A stretch of DNA of 64,000 nucleotides from Ochotona curzoniae (Eukaryota; Chordata; Mammalia; Lagomorpha; Ochotonidae). The first letter of the stretch is position 1; every line of letters starts with the position of its first letter. Of this stretch, positions 5,074 to 57,519 are shown piece by piece. The DNA lies in the NCBI RefSeq assembly GCF_017591425.1, contig NW_024466413.1, positions 1,426,001 to 1,490,000 of the forward strand, written 5' to 3'. The notes below the pieces were generated by a model. The model made no database searches and was not told the DNA's origin. It saw only the letters and a program-made list of their open reading frames with translations. Position numbers and translations under genes: made by a program.

Positions 5074-6176
5074 CCTCCCCACGCCTCGGGTGTCCTGGCC
5101 TCGCCACTGCTGGGGTGTCCTGGCCTCCCCACTGCTGGGGTGTCCTCCTGGCTCCCACTGCTGGGGTGTCCTCCTGGCCTCCCCACTGCTGAGGTGTCCT
5201 GGCCTTCCCACTGCTGGGGTGTCCTCCTGGCCTCGCCACTGCTGGGGTGTCCTGGCCTTCCCACTGCTGCGGTCTCCTCCTGGCCTCGCCACTGCTGGGG
5301 TGTCCTGGCCTTCCCACTGCTGGGGTGTCCTCCTGGCCTCACCACTGCTGGGGTGTCCTGGCCTTCCCATTGCTGGGGTGTCATCCTGGCCTCCCCATTC
5401 CTGGGGTGTCCTCCTGGCCTCGCCACTGCTGGGTGTCCTCCTGGCCTCCCCACTCCTGGGGTGTCCTGGTCTTCCCACTGCTGGGGTGTCCTCCTGGTCT
5501 CACCATTGCTGGGGTGTCCTCCTGGCCTCTCCATTCCTGGGGTGTCCTCCTGGCCTCCCCACTCCTGGGTTGTCCTCCTGGCCTCGCCACTCCTGGGGTG
5601 TCCTGGCCTCCCCACTGCTGGGGTGTCATTCTGGCCTCCCCATTCCTGGGGTGTCCTCCTGGCCTCCCCACTCCTGGAGTGTCCTGGTCTTCCCACTGCT
5701 GGGGTGTCCTCCTGGTCTCACCATTGCTGGGGTGTCCTCCTGGCCTCGCCATTCCTGGAGTGTCCTCCTGGCCTCGCCACTGCTGGGTGTCCTCCTGGCC
5801 TCGCCACTGCTGGGGTGTCCTGGCCTTCCCACTGCTGGGGTGTCCTCCTGGCCTCGCCACTGCTGAGGTGTCACCTGGCCTCCCCACTGCTGGGGTGTCA
5901 CCTGGCCTTCCCACTGCTAGGGTGTCCTCCTGGTCTCGCCACTGCTGGGGTGTCCTCCTGGCCACTGCTGGTGTGTCCTCTTGGCCTTACCATTCCTGCG
6001 GTATCCTCCTGGCCTTCCCACTGCTGGGGTGTCCTGGCCTTCCCACTGCTGGGGTGTCCTCCTGGCCTCGCCACTGCTGGGGTGTCACCTGGCCTCCCTA
6101 CTCCTGGGTTGTCCTCCTGGCCTCGCCACTGCTGGGGTGTCACCTGGCCTCCCTACTCCTGGGTTGTCCTCCTGGC
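5074..6176. repeat. Minisatellite, 25/28-bp units, about 40 copies
   Basis: The unit is tgtcctggcctccccactgc tgggg (25 bp) or the same with an extra CCT after tgtcct (28 bp). Variants are g/c at cctcgcc versus cctcccc, cactgctg versus cattcctg, and shortened units such as gtcacctgg. The order of variant units is repeated in blocks (compare about 5400-5560 and 5640-5800, and the last two near-identical units at 6070-6110 and 6130-6170), showing recent block duplication. The array starts about 50 bp after the donor of the first FAM135B exon. The unit has no stop codon in most frames on either strand, which produces long but meaningless open frames. Confidence 0.95.
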
Positions 6177-8067
6177 CACAGCCTCAGGAATGCCTCTCAG
6201 AAATGTCTTTCCATAGTTACAGCTCAGTGGGACATGGATCATGTAGGCAGGTAGCTTCTCCAAGTCCCTGTATGTTTCCATAGTAAAATATCAGAGACTA
6301 GAGCAGCAGGTCTTACAAACTGAGTGGCTGCACACTGAAAGTCCGGGTACTGCTGTACACATCTGGTGAAGGCTATCTGCCACATGCCCTCATGGTGGGT
6401 GGAGGGGCAGCAAAGCCAGTGTCAAACTCATTCTGTCAAAACCTTGCTCCTGAGATAACAGCATAGAACCCTCATGGCCTTGTGCTCTCTTGAACATTCT
6501 ACCTGTCAACACGTTGGGGATTTGAGTTTCTGACACAGGAATATTGGCACATTCAAGATCCAAGCCATAGTGCATCTCAATTATGTGTCACAGGCTTGAT
6601 CCACTGGCGTGCTCTCATGTCTGACTCCTCCACAGATTTCCAAAGTGGTGTTCACTGAGGGTTTTCCACGTGTGACTCTACAAGAAAACATACTTCAAAG
6701 CCCCCTTTTGAATCAAAAGATTCTTGTGGAATTCTGCACTTTGTGCTAAATATCTGACACCAACTTTCAACTCTCTGAAAAGAAAATCCATTTAGGCACA
6801 ACCCTGTGATTAAATAAGCAAGAAGTTAATCCTGTACAAAATGGCTGCCTTTAGGTTCATTCTGTGGCCTCTTCATTCCCCGTGGAAAAGCCAATCAGCT
6901 TTTCAGATCTCTTTCAGGTGATCAATGAATCCTTTTTCTTAAGGGATTAAGAAGCCCCGTGAAATATAATTTCAAAACTATGTAAACTCTAGATAAATTT
7001 ATAACTTTTTCCATTGCTTCCCTTTCCCACCCTACTCACAGATGCAAGCTTTCTCAGGCTAGGAACCCCCCAGTGCAGACACCACACATCGGAAGGATCT
7101 GGTATTTCTCCATTTACCTTGTTCTCACTGTGGCCTAAGATGAGGGAGAAATGGAAGAAGGGGCAAGTTCTGTTTGATTGGTTCTTTTGTAAGCAGGGTC
7201 TTCATTTGTTACAGAGGATCACGAAAATGAATGAGTGAAGAAAATCAAATCATTGGTTTGATTTTTGCACCACTATTGACTTGTCTTGTGATTCCCTTTT
7301 CTGGGAACCTTTCACAGTTATCTTGTAGATGCTGAGGAACTATCCTTGGAGTGACCTTGGCAAAGAACCCTGGGGAGCCCTCCTCCTGCCCCACCTGGCC
7401 CCATCCTATGTTGATGCCTCTGACACATGATGGTTATGTCACTGGTGACAGTCCTTGGAGGAGGCTTTGGGGAACCTGATACTTTCCTAAGGAACCCAGT
7501 CACAGGCAATCAGGCGGATGCCACCTGCCCAAAGCTGCTCTCTCTCCCTTGGGCCATTCTTGTCACCCACAGCTTCTGTCCAGAGGGCCTTGGCACAGTT
7601 GTAGAGGGTGCAGGGAAAGCTATCTGTAGATGCTTGTGCTTTGGCTGGGGAGGGGCAAGGAAGCCCCTCTCTGCTCTGTTCTGTGACCAGCCTCTTGGCA
7701 CACTTGGGCCACTCTGAATTCAAATGATCCTTATGACTGGTCTGTGCAACCTCTTCAGCAAGCACTCTCTCCTTTCATTTGGAGAATTGGGGCAGGAAGC
7801 TGCCTTGCTGATGTCAGGGAGCAGATCCTCCCATCTGGTCGTGGGAAGTGCTCCTTCACTGCCCCATTCCTGAATCTGTCTAATGGTTGTAGGGAGTTGC
7901 AATGTCAGGAAGTTGTACTGGAGGGTGCCTGTACCAAGGCTGGGCTTCTGCGAGGTGTTAGAGATCCGTTGTCAGTGGACACCTGCTCATGCCACACTGC
8001 CTGCCTGCCTTTGGATGGTGCCTCTGCCACTGTCAGGGCTCAGCCTCTGGGGTTCCTCGCCTTGTCT

Positions 8068-14229: not shown

Positions 14230-14995
14230 AGCTCCTCATATTGTATACTATATATCTATTTTAATAAAAATATATAATATGCATATCTAAAATATATGTT
14301 TAAATATATATTTGAATATATATTGTGTAAATTCATATATTTATAAATTTATATATATCGGCCGTTGCGGCTCACTTGGGGAGTGAATCATTGGACGGAA
14401 GATCTTCCTCTCTCTGTCTCTCCTCTCTGTATATCCGCCTTTCCAATAAAAAATAATAAAATATAAATATATATAATATATTATATATTAAATATTTATA
14501 TATTCTATATTTATATATTATATATGTATATATTTATAAATTTATAAATAATAATATAATATAATTATATAAATATAATAATATAAATATATAAATTATA
14601 TTGTTTTATATATTTATATGTTATATAAATGTATAAATATAGAATATATATTTAAATGTGGATTTATTATATATAATAATATATAATTTATTATATATTA
14701 TATACAATATAATATGATAGATAATATATAATTTAAAATTTATAATTTAAAATGTATAATTTATATTATACATATAATATATAATATGTAATGTAATATA
14801 TATATTTTATAATATATGTTATATACTTAAATATCTAAATATATTTTAATACATAATTTATAAACATACTTATATTCATATACAGTATTTTTATATCTAT
14901 ATAAATATAATAAATATATGTGAATATATACACAAATATGTAAATATATACATTTTAAACATATCATTTAAAAATATTATATGTATTTTTTAAGG
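14230..14995. repeat. AT-only island
   Basis: Apart from the CSINE fragment at 14355-14460, about 650 bp consist almost entirely of A and T with many TATATA and ATATAATATA motifs and local self-complementary runs. It probably grew from CSINE tails by repeat slippage. Confidence 0.9.
14355..14460 (+). mobile_element. CSINE 3' fragment inside the AT island
   Basis: The sequence cggccgttgcggctcacttg through ggacggaagatcttcctc to cctttccaataaaaaat is the 3' third of a young-type CSINE. AT-only sequence flanks it on both sides. It starts abruptly and is 5'-truncated. Confidence 0.8.
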
Positions 14996-15966
14996 ATGTG
15001 CTCTTTGTACTGTGCTCCACAGCATTAGAGATGGCAGCAGCAAGGGTAAACCAGAGCCATATTTCAAATTCCGTAATGGCACACTAAGGGAGTAGAGATT
15101 TGTTCATCATACAAGAAGGTCACACCAAGAGTTTGAGGCCTTAGAACAGTACTGATGAGAGCTCATTTTTGCAAAGACCCTGCCAACCACTGCAGGGTCA
15201 GTGAGCTGAAGCCACTGTAGAGTCGAGGTCTGGGGACTGACCAGAGAGAAGTGTCGCCAGCCTTGGAAGGACAGTGGAGTTCAGGTGTCCCTCCTTTGGC
15301 TTCCAGGAGCCCTGACGCTTCTTGCAAGGACTGGAGATTGGGGTGCCTTAGACTTAGCCTCCTGACATGAGCGGTGTCTGGCCAGGTTGTCTGCCGCAGC
15401 TGTGCAGAGGAACACACACAGAAACTTTGAAGAAGTGCGGGGACTCCTCCAGGGAGGGGTGGAAACAGAACAGTGCTCTGTTGTTGGGATCCTGCAGGAA
15501 GAGTTTCTGCCACGGTGGTTGGGGACAAAGCAGCCCTTGGAGATCAGGCAGATGCTCATCAAAGAGGTCCAGCTCTCGTTAGTGCAGAAAAGCATTTTTT
15601 TTTCCACAATTAAATCCCATCCCTGGGAAGCAGTTGTGTAATTAGAATTTAACCTCGAAAAGCAATCTTCACAAAAACACAGCCAAGAAAATAATTTTAA
15701 CTGTCTGATGAGTTCAGCTGAATTTCACTAAGAATTCCCTGTCCAACCACAAGCTAAGCAAGACCTATACTTGAGGAATTGGGAAGGTTTCAGCTGCCAC
15801 TTTGCAGCTTGTCCTCTGAATGTGTCGCTGGCGTCTGTTCTCACACACGCTCCATCCTTCTCCTGGGATGGCTTTGCTCCCCATCTGCTTGCTAGGCAGC
15901 AGAATTGCTTCAAATAACCTGAATAAAATGGGGTGATGACATCCAGCTTTAATGGCTGTATATGAA

Positions 15967-18387: not shown

Positions 18388-18743
18388 TAAAGGGCTGTCC
18401 CTGGACTCTGGGCTTACACAGGGGTGTTGGCACCGAGCTCGGCTCAGTCTCCCATTTCCTCCCTCTGTGTCAGTTTGCCCTCCAGTGGAGTGGGCCACTA
18501 ACCATGCCCTCATGCTGAGTCCCGTGTGCCTGTTGTAATGCATATGAATTTCCTCATGTATCATGTTCTTACCCTTGCGGCTTTTTTTTCTGAGAAATAC
18601 CTGCTGCTATTCTGTGACCACACACTGTGTGATTTCCCTAATTTGTACTGACCCAATATATGGTTTCTCTATTAGTAGCCTGCTTAGAAGTAATCAAACT
18701 GTAACATTCACTGGTCACCAGACACATGGGACAAATTAAGAGA

Positions 18744-18765
18744 GGTCATTCATTGGAACTTAAAA
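18744..18765 (+). mobile_element. Palindromic DNA-element copy, left half
   Basis: The left end 'gaggtcattcattggaact' matches the terminal pattern seen at 15967 (ggggcttcaaaaagtttgtg). The copy is split here by the composite insertion; its right half is at 21781-21912. Confidence 0.55.
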
Positions 18766-19299
18766 GCATTTTTAATTTATATTTTTGACAATCTTTACAT
18801 AGTTAATTAGGGTAAAGAGGTTCAAGGGCTATAGGAAAATGGATAAGACTATTATTTCCATATTGTTTCCTTTATGTTTAAAGAGGAGTATTAAGGGAAA
18901 AGGCCCACCCAATTTCCCACCCTCCCCAGGTCCCAGATGTAGGGTATGCTCCGAAGTTCTTGCTCAAGTGGTTTTGATAGTTCACCAGTTCTGAATCACT
19001 GCCAGACTTGCCACTCCAAGCACGATGAGGTCACCGAAGAATCCACTGATTGTCATAGTCCATCATAGAGTCTCTGTTTGCCCCGTATTTCGCTGCCAAC
19101 ATGTAGCTGAGATGGTTGATTGACCTGTTCTGTCTTCTCTCTTTTCTTGGTTAGGGTTCTGAGTCCAGCATTTCGATTGGGGAGATCTCCAAAGAAACTT
19201 TGTCTGAGGTGTTCTCAAACCAGATTCTTGTATGTGCTAGCAAGTACAAGGCCTGGCACAGTCCATGGCCCTGATCAGCTGGTGGTTGCAATCGCTGGG

Positions 19300-21120
19300 T
19301 TGGTTTTGTTTTCAGCCCCAACTTCCACTGGAACCAATGGGTGTTGCAGTCCAGCCTAGTGCTGCACAGTACATACTCAACCCTCGCATAAACCAGTGGG
19401 AGCTGCAGCCTTTGACTTGACAGAACTAGCCCCAAATGCCAGCTTCTGCCAGCTGATGCTGTGGCTAAGCCCAAACAACCCTCACCCACTCTAATTTTGT
19501 TTGCACCAGTAGGAATAATCACCCTAGCCTGGCTTTTCCCTGATCTAGTCCACATGAGGCATACAGGTGTTGTAGCCCTGCTTGGTCTGGACTGCCCCAT
19601 CCCAGCTCATGCTCTCCATTGGGAATAGCTGTCCAGCAAAGGAACCACCCCTTATTCCCCTGCCAGCTCTGCCCCCTCCCTTCCTTGTTCTCACCCGTGC
19701 TGGTTGGGTGCAGCGGTCCCTTCCGGTACAGGCAACCTCACCTTGGTGTTTTGTATTGTGCACTGGTTTTTGTTGCAGTTGAACCTGGCTTGACCCACAC
19801 TCTGTTCTGGTGCTTGGATTTGCCAGTGGATGATGTAAACAGATTCAGCTTGGTCTGTCCCTGATCCCTGCCAAATGTATGCCAGTGGGTAAATTTCCAT
19901 GACCTGTTCTGGGCTGTTTCCTATCATGTTTCTTGAGCTTACCTGAAGGGACTATGTCCTGCTAAAGGAGTTGCCCAGGCTCCTCCTCAGAACCTCTTCC
20001 AAAGCCAGATTTTACGCATACCAGTGGGTCCATGAGCCAGCCCTACTCAGTCCACCTCCTGTCATAGCAGGAACAGTGGCTTTTCCTGACTGGCCTTCAA
20101 CCCAAACTGGTCCTTGCTCTTGGATGCTTCAGCCCAGTCATGGCTTGTCCATACCCACATATGGCTCACACATGGCTCAGTAGGGGTTGAGATCTTGCCT
20201 AGTTCATCCCAGATCTGCCCTGGATCTCCAGCACACCAGAGGGTGTTGGAGTCTGGCCTGGCTCGGTGCATCCAATACCAGTTCTCACTTGTGCCAAGGG
20301 AAACTATAAAGATTTCCCATTCAGAATGCAGCCCCGATTCAAAGCAACATGCCTCTTGGTTGGAACCTCAACCCAGCTAGGGTTGTCCTGTTAGCTCCCT
20401 AACCAGGCCTGTTCCCAGCCATAGATTGCCTGCATGCCAGTGGTTGCACTGACTCAGCCTGGCTCAGCCCCTCACCTGTCCCGACCTCTGCCTTAGACAC
20501 TGGCTTAGCGTTCCTGGCTCATGCACCCAGTAGGTACAAGAGCCTTGCTCGGCATGACCTGTGCTCTGTCCTGGTCTCTAGTTTTGCTTCTGGGCTAAGG
20601 TTTGCTCAGTCCTGCCTGATCTACCCTGTTCCATTACCAATTGACACATTTGCCAGATGTTGGAGCTAATTTGCCCAGCTTGTCCAACCCCCAGGTCTGG
20701 ACCACATGTTCACCAGCGGGAGCTATGACTCACCAAGGGAGTTTCCCAAGTTCCTCCACTTGATCCACTCCCAGACCCAGTTCTCATACATGCCATTGGG
20801 TTTAGGCCAGGTTCTGGCAAAGTCTTACCTTCCATTCGTCCTTGTATGAGCTGGTGAACGTTGCAGCCCAGCCCACCCCACACCCTATTCAGGATGTGCC
20901 TTTGGGTGCTGCTGCCCTGACCAGTCCAGACTGTTGGAGGTTCCTTTACCTGTGATTCATGGCAGGCTCTTTGGTCACACCTAGCTTAGTCCATCACCAC
21001 CCCATCTCTTGAGCTAACCAGTGGGGCTAGAATTTCCACAAGGTTTTGCCCACACATCCCTCACAGAATCTGCCCCCAGTTATGGTTCTCAAGTGCTAGT
21101 TAATATAATGGCCCTGCCTA
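19300..21120. repeat. Degenerate ~58-bp tandem array inside the composite element
   Basis: A motif like ccagtgggtgntgcagccca recurs near 19333, 19391, 19450, 19505, 19560, 19758, 19822, 19881, 20019, 20435, 20710, 20847 and 21014, mostly 55-65 bp apart or multiples of that. The units are heavily diverged, so the array is old or was never homogenised. Confidence 0.65.
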
Positions 21121-21420
21121 ATGTGACCTTTCTCCTTATCCATCATGTCAGGTAACAGGATATGATTCTGCTGGACAAGCACCGAGCCATCGCTTTAGCA
21201 TTGACTGGTATTTGGCGGTCAGCATTATTCAGTGATTACAAGTTTTTCAAAATAAGAATTACTGTCATTGGGAATCTTTGCAATTGCTTCACGTCCTAGA
21301 AGCACAGTGGGTTCAACCTGGATCTACCTAAGCAGTGATTCAAAGAACCAAAACTCCAGAGCTTCCCGGCCGGGCGGCCAGCAGGCAGAGCCTGGCAACA
21401 AATGGCGCACTGGCCACCCG

Positions 21421-21780
21421 TGGACCGCTCACCACGTGCACATGGTGGCTGGCGTCTGGGATCCAGGCATGAGACTCCTTGTCCTGAGACCCACCAGCAG
21501 CCAGGAGGCTGCTGGAAGTTTAAACTCCTAGGCCCATGGTCGCGCCCCTCCCCAGTCCCTTTCACCGCCCAATGAGGGTGGCGTGTGGGCCCTGGACCTG
21601 CCCAGTCACGGAAACCTCCCCCCTTGGTGTACTCACCCCTAAGGAAGCAGCCCCTGGAGCTCAGGCAGGCCCAGGGACAGCTCACCACGTGCAAATGGTG
21701 GCTGGTGGCTGGGATCCAGGCATGACACGCCCCGTCCTGAGACCCACTAACAGCCGAGAGGCTGCTGGAAGTTTAAACTC
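21421..21780 (-). repeat. Two GC-rich monomers, ~252-bp period
   Basis: Each unit contains ctcaccacgtgcanatggtg, gggatccaggcatgac/gag and gctgctggaagtttaaactc; they start at about 21421 and 21672. Each carries a CACGTG E-box in a near-palindrome. A promoter role, like the 5' monomers of some L1 families, is inferred from position and composition only. Confidence 0.65.
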
Positions 21781-21912
21781 TGGAACTTAAAAATATTTAT
21801 AAAAAACATAGTTTATAAAATGTCTGTTGATGGATACTAAATATTTTTTTGCACAGACATATAAACTTTTAATTCAATTTTCCTAGGAACTTTTGGAAAG
21901 ACCTTTATGTGC
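21781..21912 (+). mobile_element. Palindromic DNA-element copy, right half
   Basis: The sequence aaaaaacatagtttataaaa through aaacttttaattcaattttc to aggaacttttggaaagacct continues the copy begun at 18744. The 12-bp duplication tggaacttaaaa is shared by both halves. Confidence 0.6.
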
Positions 21913-56633: not shown

Positions 56634-57024
56634 AATCAGTGCCCTTTTAAACACAGCAACCTAAGGCTTCTGCCCACAGAGGGCAGTGCCCTGTGTGCCT
56701 CCTTGTGCTCTTCTGTCCTCCACCCCCAGCATGGTTCAGTCTTGCCCAGAGCTGCACTCTCCTCGCAGTAACCAGAATGCACACACCAAGGTGCAGCCAT
56801 GGCCTGTGGCACGGGGGGTGGATTCTATGTCCTGGTTGGTTTCTTTCTCTGGGGGTTAGTGCGTCTGGCAGAGGGTCCTCAATGCATCGCTTCATTGAGA
56901 AACTCAGAAACATTCTTTTGATGCTAGGATACTCTGGTGCCAGGAGACTATGTCACTCCTCGGGTCCCACCATGCAGTTCCTGATCTGTCACTCAGGGAG
57001 ACACAGGACAACTGCTCCAACACC

Positions 57025-57519
57025 ACCCCCCATTCCATCCCCATCCCATCCCCCATCCCATTCCATCCCATCCCATCCCCCATCCCCCATCCCATCCCAT
57101 TCCCCATCCCATCCCCCATCCCATTCCATCCCATCCTATCCTATCCCATCCCATACTCCCATCCCATCGCATCCCCCCCATCCCATCCTATCCCATCCCC
57201 CATCCCATCCCCCATCCCATCCCATCCCATCCCCCCATCCCATCCCCATCCCATCCCCCATCCCATCCCCATCCCATCCCCCATCCCATTCCATCCCATC
57301 CCATCCCCCATCCCCCATCCCATCCCATCCCCCATCTCATCCCCCATCCCATCCCATCCCCCATCCCATCCCATCCCATCCCATCCCATCCCCCATCCCA
57401 TCCCATCCCCCCATCCCTCCATTCCATTCCTCCATCTCCCCCATCCCATCCCACCATCCCATCCCATCCCATCCCATCCCATCCCATCCCATCCCATCCC
57501 ATCCCATTCCATCCCATCC
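57025..57519. repeat. CCATCC / CCATCCC tandem array (~0.5 kb)
   Basis: Units of ccatc, ccatcc and ccccatc repeat with few interruptions. The minus strand therefore carries dense GGGAT GGGAT runs, a classic G-quadruplex pattern with two-base loops. The last 90 bp are nearly pure (CCCAT)n. Confidence 0.95.

What the first reader, a model, noticed from the sequence alone, without database searches (positions are those of the whole stretch)
18754..21792. Roughly 3 kb composite retroelement with a VNTR-like middle and a resolved insertion site
The sequence shows an exact 12-bp direct repeat (tggaacttaaaa) on both sides of a block that combines GC-rich 5' monomers, about 1.8 kb of degenerate 58-bp repeats and a low-GC tail. 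The outer flanks together rebuild an older palindromic element, which is independent evidence of a single insertion event. The architecture is like primate SVA or gibbon LAVA elements: a promoter-like head, a tandem array and a retrotransposon tail without coding capacity. That this is an undescribed lagomorph composite family, rather than an internally deleted L1, is inference. The duplication start does not match the canonical TT|AAAA cut, which is a weak point.
Basis: partly seen in the sequence, partly recalled or inferred. Interest (0 to 1): 0.75.

Follow-up and report, generated by a model that had tools for sequence, protein, structure and literature searches.

The report
Non-coding L1-hitchhiking retroelement family
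This 3 kb block is one copy of a repeated, protein-less DNA family that was copied around this mammal's genome, most likely by borrowing the machinery of the LINE-1 retrotransposon; whether repeat databases already list the family could not be checked.

Summary
The block is a real retrotransposed insertion. The 12-bp flanking repeat occurs in the window only at the two edges (0.02 expected). The window's own 2.08-Gb assembly holds other copies: of 17 independent loci fetched by the GC-rich head, 16 carry head, array and tail in the same order, 79-92% identical piece by piece. Many, not all, copies show their own target-site duplications. The best-marked 11 share an L1-endonuclease-like cut; copies share a 3' end plus A-rich tract and are often 5'-truncated. 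No convincing ORF.

The ~58-bp repeat is real but old and frozen: its length varies among copies only by deletions and one two-state segment (~222 or ~318 bp), which the window copy lacks and 37 of 37 spanning loci have. The flank palindrome is not above chance. The tail does not match the 3' UTR of the one young L1 compared; L1 5' UTRs could not be fetched.

Best reading: an L1-mobilised, non-coding composite with a monomeric, promoter-like head. It works like SVA/LAVA but fails defining features. Repbase and Dfam could not be consulted.

The parts
21781..21792 (-). Target-site duplication, copy on the element's 5' side (TGGAACTTAAAA on +)
   Evidence: Exact 12-bp repeat, only two matches in window, 0.02 expected
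21422..21780 (-). Head: about 1.4 GC-rich 253-bp monomers (repeated sub-block 21675-21780 and 21422-21527)
   Evidence: own-genome search: 2034 first-look candidates, 40 scored, 48 matches of 82-100% identity, the window itself included
21131..21421 (-). Non-repeated region between head and array
   Evidence: Colinear in other copies
19141..21130 (-). Central region of strongly diverged ~58-bp repeats, frozen in the family
   Evidence: Hold-out profile tests; 13 copies, window included, align colinearly, pairwise identity mean 0.892, range 0.853-0.932
19411..19412 (-). Point where this copy lacks a segment that other copies have (~222 bp in most, ~318 bp in a second class)
   Evidence: 37 of 37 held loci that span the point carry 196-319 extra bases; 32 independent after removing same-flank or same-locus pairs
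18769..19140 (-). AT-rich 3' tail; family 3' end reads ...AAAGATTGTCAAAAATATAAT plus A-rich tract
   Evidence: 4920 first-look candidates, 40 scored, 91-100% identity, the window itself included; common 3' end; no similarity to the 3' UTR of one young L1
18766..18789 (-). A-rich end of the element (decayed poly(A)-like)
   Evidence: Sequence and comparison with other copies' A-rich ends
18754..18765 (-). Target-site duplication, copy on the element's 3' side

Best explanation
The block is one copy, apparently complete at its 5' end and with a private internal deletion, of a multi-copy, non-coding, non-autonomous non-LTR retroelement family of about 3.2 kb. SHOWN: a fixed order of parts (253-bp GC-rich monomers, a short unique region, an old frozen ~58-bp repeat region, an AT-rich tail), a common 3' end followed by an A-rich tract, locus-specific target-site duplications in a good part of the copies, frequent 5' truncation, and cut sites resembling the L1 endonuclease site. 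INFERRED: RNA polymerase II starts within the monomeric head, as in monomer-bearing rodent L1s (recalled); the polyadenylated RNA is picked up in trans by L1 proteins; L1 endonuclease nicks a TT|AAAA-like site; and target-primed reverse transcription inserts a copy. L1s with 1306-aa open frames, a possible source of the machinery, exist in the same genome.
For: Co-occurrence: 16 of 17 independent head-anchored loci carry head, array and tail in the same order and orientation (20 regions fetched, 3 being same-flank duplicates; the exception, L048, breaks off at sense 443). Duplications: 6 of 16 independent loci have a direct repeat not reached by any of 200 shuffles and 9 of 16 by 10 or fewer, 8 of 19 by 4 or fewer of 100 (L019's does not abut the start). 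The sequences differ from locus to locus. Cut site: 11 copies match TT|AAAA at 4.45 of 6 against 2.13 background, 0 of 20000 resamplings. 3' end: common end, A-rich tract, unrelated flanks. Truncation: in 19 of 28 independent tail-anchored loci the homology stops within the ~1.5 kb held upstream. Coding: in 9 of 10 copies the longest ORF is within the range of 50 shuffles, L052 just over (132 against 128 aa); the window's longest, 149 aa, is reached by 13 of 500 shuffles and runs across the point where this copy lacks the segment; the array majority's 114 and 123 aa are below the 95th percentile of 133. 5' ends: 7 of 17 fall within 6 bp of one monomer phase, 2.7% under the strictest null.
Against: For the window copy alone the cut site is poor (1 of 6 at the duplication start, 4 if shifted 2-4 bases). 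Many copies show no clear duplication (7 of 16, 11 of 19). Leading A's of a duplication can be inflated by chance matches to the A-rich tail. L040 lacks the end of the tail and has no duplication. No transcript or promoter assay exists here. The 5'-end clustering weakens from 0 of 20000 under a uniform null to 539 of 20000 when the null is restricted to the observed phase range, and the copies were picked by similarity to the window's head. ORF1 was not searched for by sequence.
Confidence: 0.87

Rival explanations
1. It is an internally deleted derivative of an L1 lineage: head and array from that L1's 5' UTR, tail from its 3' UTR, ORFs lost, then amplified.
For: Tandem GC-rich monomers at the 5' end and an A-rich 3' end are L1-like in kind; the insertion signature is L1-like.
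Against: The 3' UTR of a young L1 (L060) shows no similarity to the tail (best E 0.34), while it does match the 3' UTR of an older L1 in L059 (76% over 165 columns, plus a second piece of 124 columns at 80% in the opposite orientation). No match to two ORF2 pieces lies between head and tail in the copies held (ORF1 not searched). Older copies in L051 and L056 (67-80% identity) already have the array-to-tail order.
Confidence: 0.25
2. It is a decayed copy of an autonomous element whose ORFs lay in the middle.
For: Only mechanical: the element is long enough to code, and the window copy's longest ORF (149 aa) is reached by only 13 of 500 shuffles.
Against: The majority of 13 copies over the middle has no ORF beyond chance; that 149-aa frame spans the private deletion point; the middle is a repeat whose unit spacing does not keep to multiples of three.
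Confidence: 0.03
3. It is a hominoid-type VNTR composite (SVA/LAVA kin) or a convergent VNTR composite with a variable array.
For: Head-array-tail layout, non-coding, L1-like insertion.
Against: Array length varies only by deletions and a two-state segment; no CT-hexamer array in the element; head is 253-bp monomers.
Confidence: 0.05
4. The copies are segmental duplications or assembly duplicates and not insertions.
For: Some fetched pairs share flanks (L039/L045, L040/L041, L047/L055, L011/L029).
Against: The other loci have unrelated 3' flanks, and many have their own duplications.
Confidence: 0.02

Closest known systems
VNTR composite retrotransposons of hominoids (SVA, LAVA, PVA, FVA; PMC4432496)
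   Same: Non-coding, L1-like insertion footprint, head-array-tail layout, target-site duplications
   Different: No CT-hexamer array; head of 253-bp monomers; array old and fixed in length and not a 30-50 bp variable array; 3' tail of unknown origin; different mammal
Monomer-bearing L1 5' UTRs of rodents (recalled, not compared by sequence)
   Same: 5' end made of tandem GC-rich monomers of varying number (2 sub-blocks in 15 of 16 copies, 4 in L040)
   Different: No ORFs follow; monomer 253 bp; sequence relation untested
HAL1 (half-L1) elements
   Same: Non-autonomous, L1-dependent (recalled)
   Different: HAL1 keep ORF1 (recalled); no ORF of that kind seen here (ORF1 not searched by sequence)
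Young L1 family of the same genome (1306-aa open frames)
   Same: Likely source of the machinery; A-rich 3' end
   Different: 3' UTR unrelated to this element's tail in the one copy compared

Membership tests
VNTR composite (SVA/LAVA) | 5' CT-hexameric repeat (PMC4432496, Background section read) | tested here: not met
   Tandem Repeats Finder on 18700-21900 lists four short low-scoring rows, none a hexamer; head is 253-bp GC-rich monomers
VNTR composite (SVA/LAVA) | Alu-like 5' region | not tested
   No alignment to Alu was made; Rfam gives no match in the window at gathering scores
VNTR composite (SVA/LAVA) | Central array of 30-50 bp GC-rich units with variable number | tested here: not met
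   Diverged units with spacings of 57 bp and more, 52% GC, length varying among copies only by deletions and a two-state segment
VNTR composite (SVA/LAVA) | Mobilised by L1 in trans | tested here: inconclusive
   Footprint of L1-type insertion seen; mobilisation itself needs an assay
HAL1 | ORF1 present, ORF2 absent (recalled) | tested here: inconclusive
   No ORF that stands out from shuffles in 9 of 10 copies or in the array majority; window's 149-aa ORF reached by 13 of 500; no search with an ORF1 sequence was made
Internally deleted L1 | 3' end is an L1 3' UTR | tested here: inconclusive
   No match to one young and one older L1 3' UTR; other L1 subfamilies untested
Internally deleted L1 | 5' end is an L1 5' UTR | not tested
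L1-mobilised non-autonomous retroelement (general kind) | Target-site duplications, TT|AAAA-like cut, A-rich 3' end, 5' truncation | tested here: met
   met at family level, duplications clear in 9 of 16 and 8 of 19 loci
L1-mobilised non-autonomous retroelement (general kind) | Multiple interspersed copies at unrelated loci | tested here: met

The most novel reading that the evidence does not exclude
A long-lived non-coding retroelement lineage, independent of L1 in both ends, that has kept its ~2 kb frozen repeat region colinear from copies 67-80% identical to the window down to the more recent ones. The persistence would mean that array and tail are needed as RNA to capture the L1 machinery: a second, independent invention of the SVA/LAVA strategy in mammals with a different promoter design.
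Probability: 0.3. Interest if true: 0.65.

Novelty: new member of a known kind. Interest (0 to 1): 0.45.

Why it matters
Large non-coding composites that hijack L1 are best known from hominoids (PMC4432496 calls the VNTR composites specific to hominoid primates). A multi-copy family of similar logic but different parts in another mammal would allow comparison of which RNA features L1 accepts. It also gives many duplication-marked insertions as markers. If repeat databases already list it, the value is mainly the anatomy: fixed array, clustered 5' ends, and a 3' end unlike the sampled L1s.

Tried and rejected
Rejected: VNTR-like behaviour; flank palindrome; L040 as a full-length L1 with this head (the ORF2 next to its tail belongs to an older L1 with a different 3' UTR, and the rest of the tail does not resume in the 5.2 kb read); L048 as a head followed by ORFs (what follows matches short, SINE-like repeats of other loci); splicing as cause of the internal deletions (no GT/AG at the junctions of the 5 loci looked at; L039's two edges fall at matching repeat positions, which suggests recombination between units).

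Literature: eight searches, of which I saw titles and abstract beginnings, listed no paper that announces such a lagomorph family. Of papers opened: passages of PMC3183009 (its pika list of families under 1% diverged names SINE and ERV/LTR families only) and outline, abstract and Background section of PMC4432496. Repbase and Dfam were not available.

The protein-database hits show pieces of the head (P0001, 1 hit) and of the array (P0002-P0005, 4 hits) in other public contigs of unknown species; P0002-P0004 are colinear with the window over a few hundred bases in shifting frames.

Full report
WHAT WAS CHECKED. The window lies in an unnamed 2.08-Gb assembly, which could be searched at times and partly read. 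The finding's edges are right. The 12-bp repeat TGGAACTTAAAA occurs exactly twice in 64 kb, at 18754-18765 and 21781-21792, with 0.02 expected. Between them lie an AT-rich tail (left), a ~2 kb middle and a GC-rich head with a 106-bp sub-block repeated at 253 bp spacing and 88.7% identity. Because the A-rich end is on the left, the element's sense strand is minus.

THE 58-BP REPEAT. Tandem Repeats Finder reports nothing of that period and autocorrelation is weak. Hold-out tests, in which a profile built on one half is searched against the other half, are positive for the window copy (top 13.6 against 8.5 in 100 shuffles, and 15.2 against 6.8). They are clearer on the majority of 13 copies (top 11.2 against 6.3 in 200 shuffles, and 20.6 against 7.2). 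So the repeat is real but very diverged; 17 units are recognised and only 6 of their 16 spacings are 57-71 bp, the rest 80-225.

THE FLANK PALINDROME. Left flank against the reverse complement of the right flank scores no better than shuffles (235 of 300 reach it; lenient scoring 114 of 300). This part of the finding is not supported.

RELATED COPIES. The head probe gave 2034 first-look candidates, 40 of them scored, 48 matches. The tail probe gave 4920 first-look candidates, 40 scored. These are tool counts, not copy numbers, and the scored ones are those most like the window. The array probe did not complete. I read 8 short head-anchored loci (L001-L008), 30 tail-anchored loci (L009-L038, L009 being the window itself) and 20 larger head-anchored regions (L039-L058). 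Same-flank pairs (L039/L045, L040/L041, L047/L055, L011/L029) and one locus fetched twice (L033/L058) are counted once where 'independent' is said. Of 17 independent loci among the 20 regions, 16 carry head, array and tail in order, at 79-92% identity piece by piece. L048 breaks off at sense base 443. L040 lacks the last part of the tail. L039, L042, L044, L047 and L058 have internal deletions. Pairwise identity over the array in 13 copies, the window included, is 0.853-0.932, and each copy is 4-10% from the majority (L051's row also took in an older fragment upstream). L051 and L056 also hold older relatives at 67-80% identity, with the same order in parts.

FROZEN, NOT VARIABLE. Across the copies read, the array aligns without visible unit gain, apart from deletions and one point (sense 2382, window 19411/19412). 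There 37 of 37 spanning loci (32 independent) carry extra sequence in two main sizes, about 222 and about 318 bp (range 196-319), while the window copy has none. The two sizes look like two subfamilies; the window copy has a private deletion.

INSERTION MECHANISM. The 3' end is common to copies and is followed by A-rich tracts and unrelated flanks. Direct repeats at the 5' start and after the A-rich end: 6 of 16 independent loci were not reached by any of 200 shuffles, 9 of 16 by 10 or fewer, and 7 of 16 were not distinguishable by that mark (L051's start was mis-set there by the older fragment), 8 of 19 were reached by 4 or fewer of 100 (L019's does not abut the start) and 11 of 19 were not. 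They differ between loci. For the 11 copies whose repeat no shuffle reached (six, five; L011, at 1 of 100, and duplicates left out) the cut matches TT|AAAA at 4.45 of 6 positions against 2.13 (0 of 20000). A-rich tails can inflate the A's, but TT precedes the cut in 5 of the 11 (L050 counted with the cut shifted by one base). In 19 of 28 independent tail-anchored loci the homology ends within the held upstream stretch. This is the footprint of L1-driven target-primed reverse transcription. L1s with 1306-aa open frames are in the same genome. That L1 moved this family in trans is inferred.

5' ENDS. In 17 copies (16 fetched plus the window), 7 starts fall within 6 bp of one phase of the monomer, and 6 of the other 11 considered within 10 bp of another. 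For the first cluster a uniform null gives 0 of 20000, the strictest null 539 of 20000; the second cluster was tested only against the uniform null (2 of 5000). It hints at defined transcription starts inside the monomers.

ORIGIN OF THE PARTS. The 3' UTR of a young L1 (L060) has no similarity to the tail, yet matches the 3' UTR of an older L1 in L059, which is itself unlike the tail. This counts against a simple internally deleted L1 for these two L1s only; L1 5' UTRs could not be fetched. Coding: in 9 of 10 copies the longest ORF is within the shuffle range, L052 just over it; the array majority is within it; the window's longest ORF (149 aa, 19154-19600) is reached by 13 of 500 shuffles but spans the private deletion point, so it is not a family feature. 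Three independent truncated copies (L015, L022, L028) start at or within a base of sense 2511 (CCAGCTGATC), each with a repeat next to it; unexplained.

VERDICT. A real, multi-copy, non-coding, L1-style retroelement. It works like SVA/LAVA and is not a member of them. Whether it is undescribed is open: the searched papers' titles and abstracts do not announce it, but Repbase and Dfam were out of reach. That the host is a lagomorph rests on recall of a C-repeat SINE-like sequence at the window start, not on a call.

Noticed in passing
window 5074-6177: 1.1-kb minisatellite, 28-bp GC-rich unit, about 40 copies, 82% matches, with open frames of up to 398 aa through it
   Followed up: no
window 57023-57519: CCCAT-type array with extreme GC skew (-0.97) and a 228-bp higher-order period
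   Followed up: no
window 14456-14950: About 0.5 kb of nearly pure AT sequence (GC 0.08 in 14501-15000)
   Followed up: no
L015, L022, L028: Three independent copies of the family truncated at the same place (sense 2511-2512), each with a direct repeat next to it; may be a reverse-transcription stall site or a short subfamily
   Followed up: partly
L018, L023, L030, L043, L050, L057 versus the rest: Two size classes (about 307-319 and about 222 bp) of the segment at sense 2382, suggesting two subfamilies
   Followed up: partly
L051, L056: Older relatives (67-80% identity) of the family; in L051 the younger copy sits between two parts of an older one
   Followed up: no
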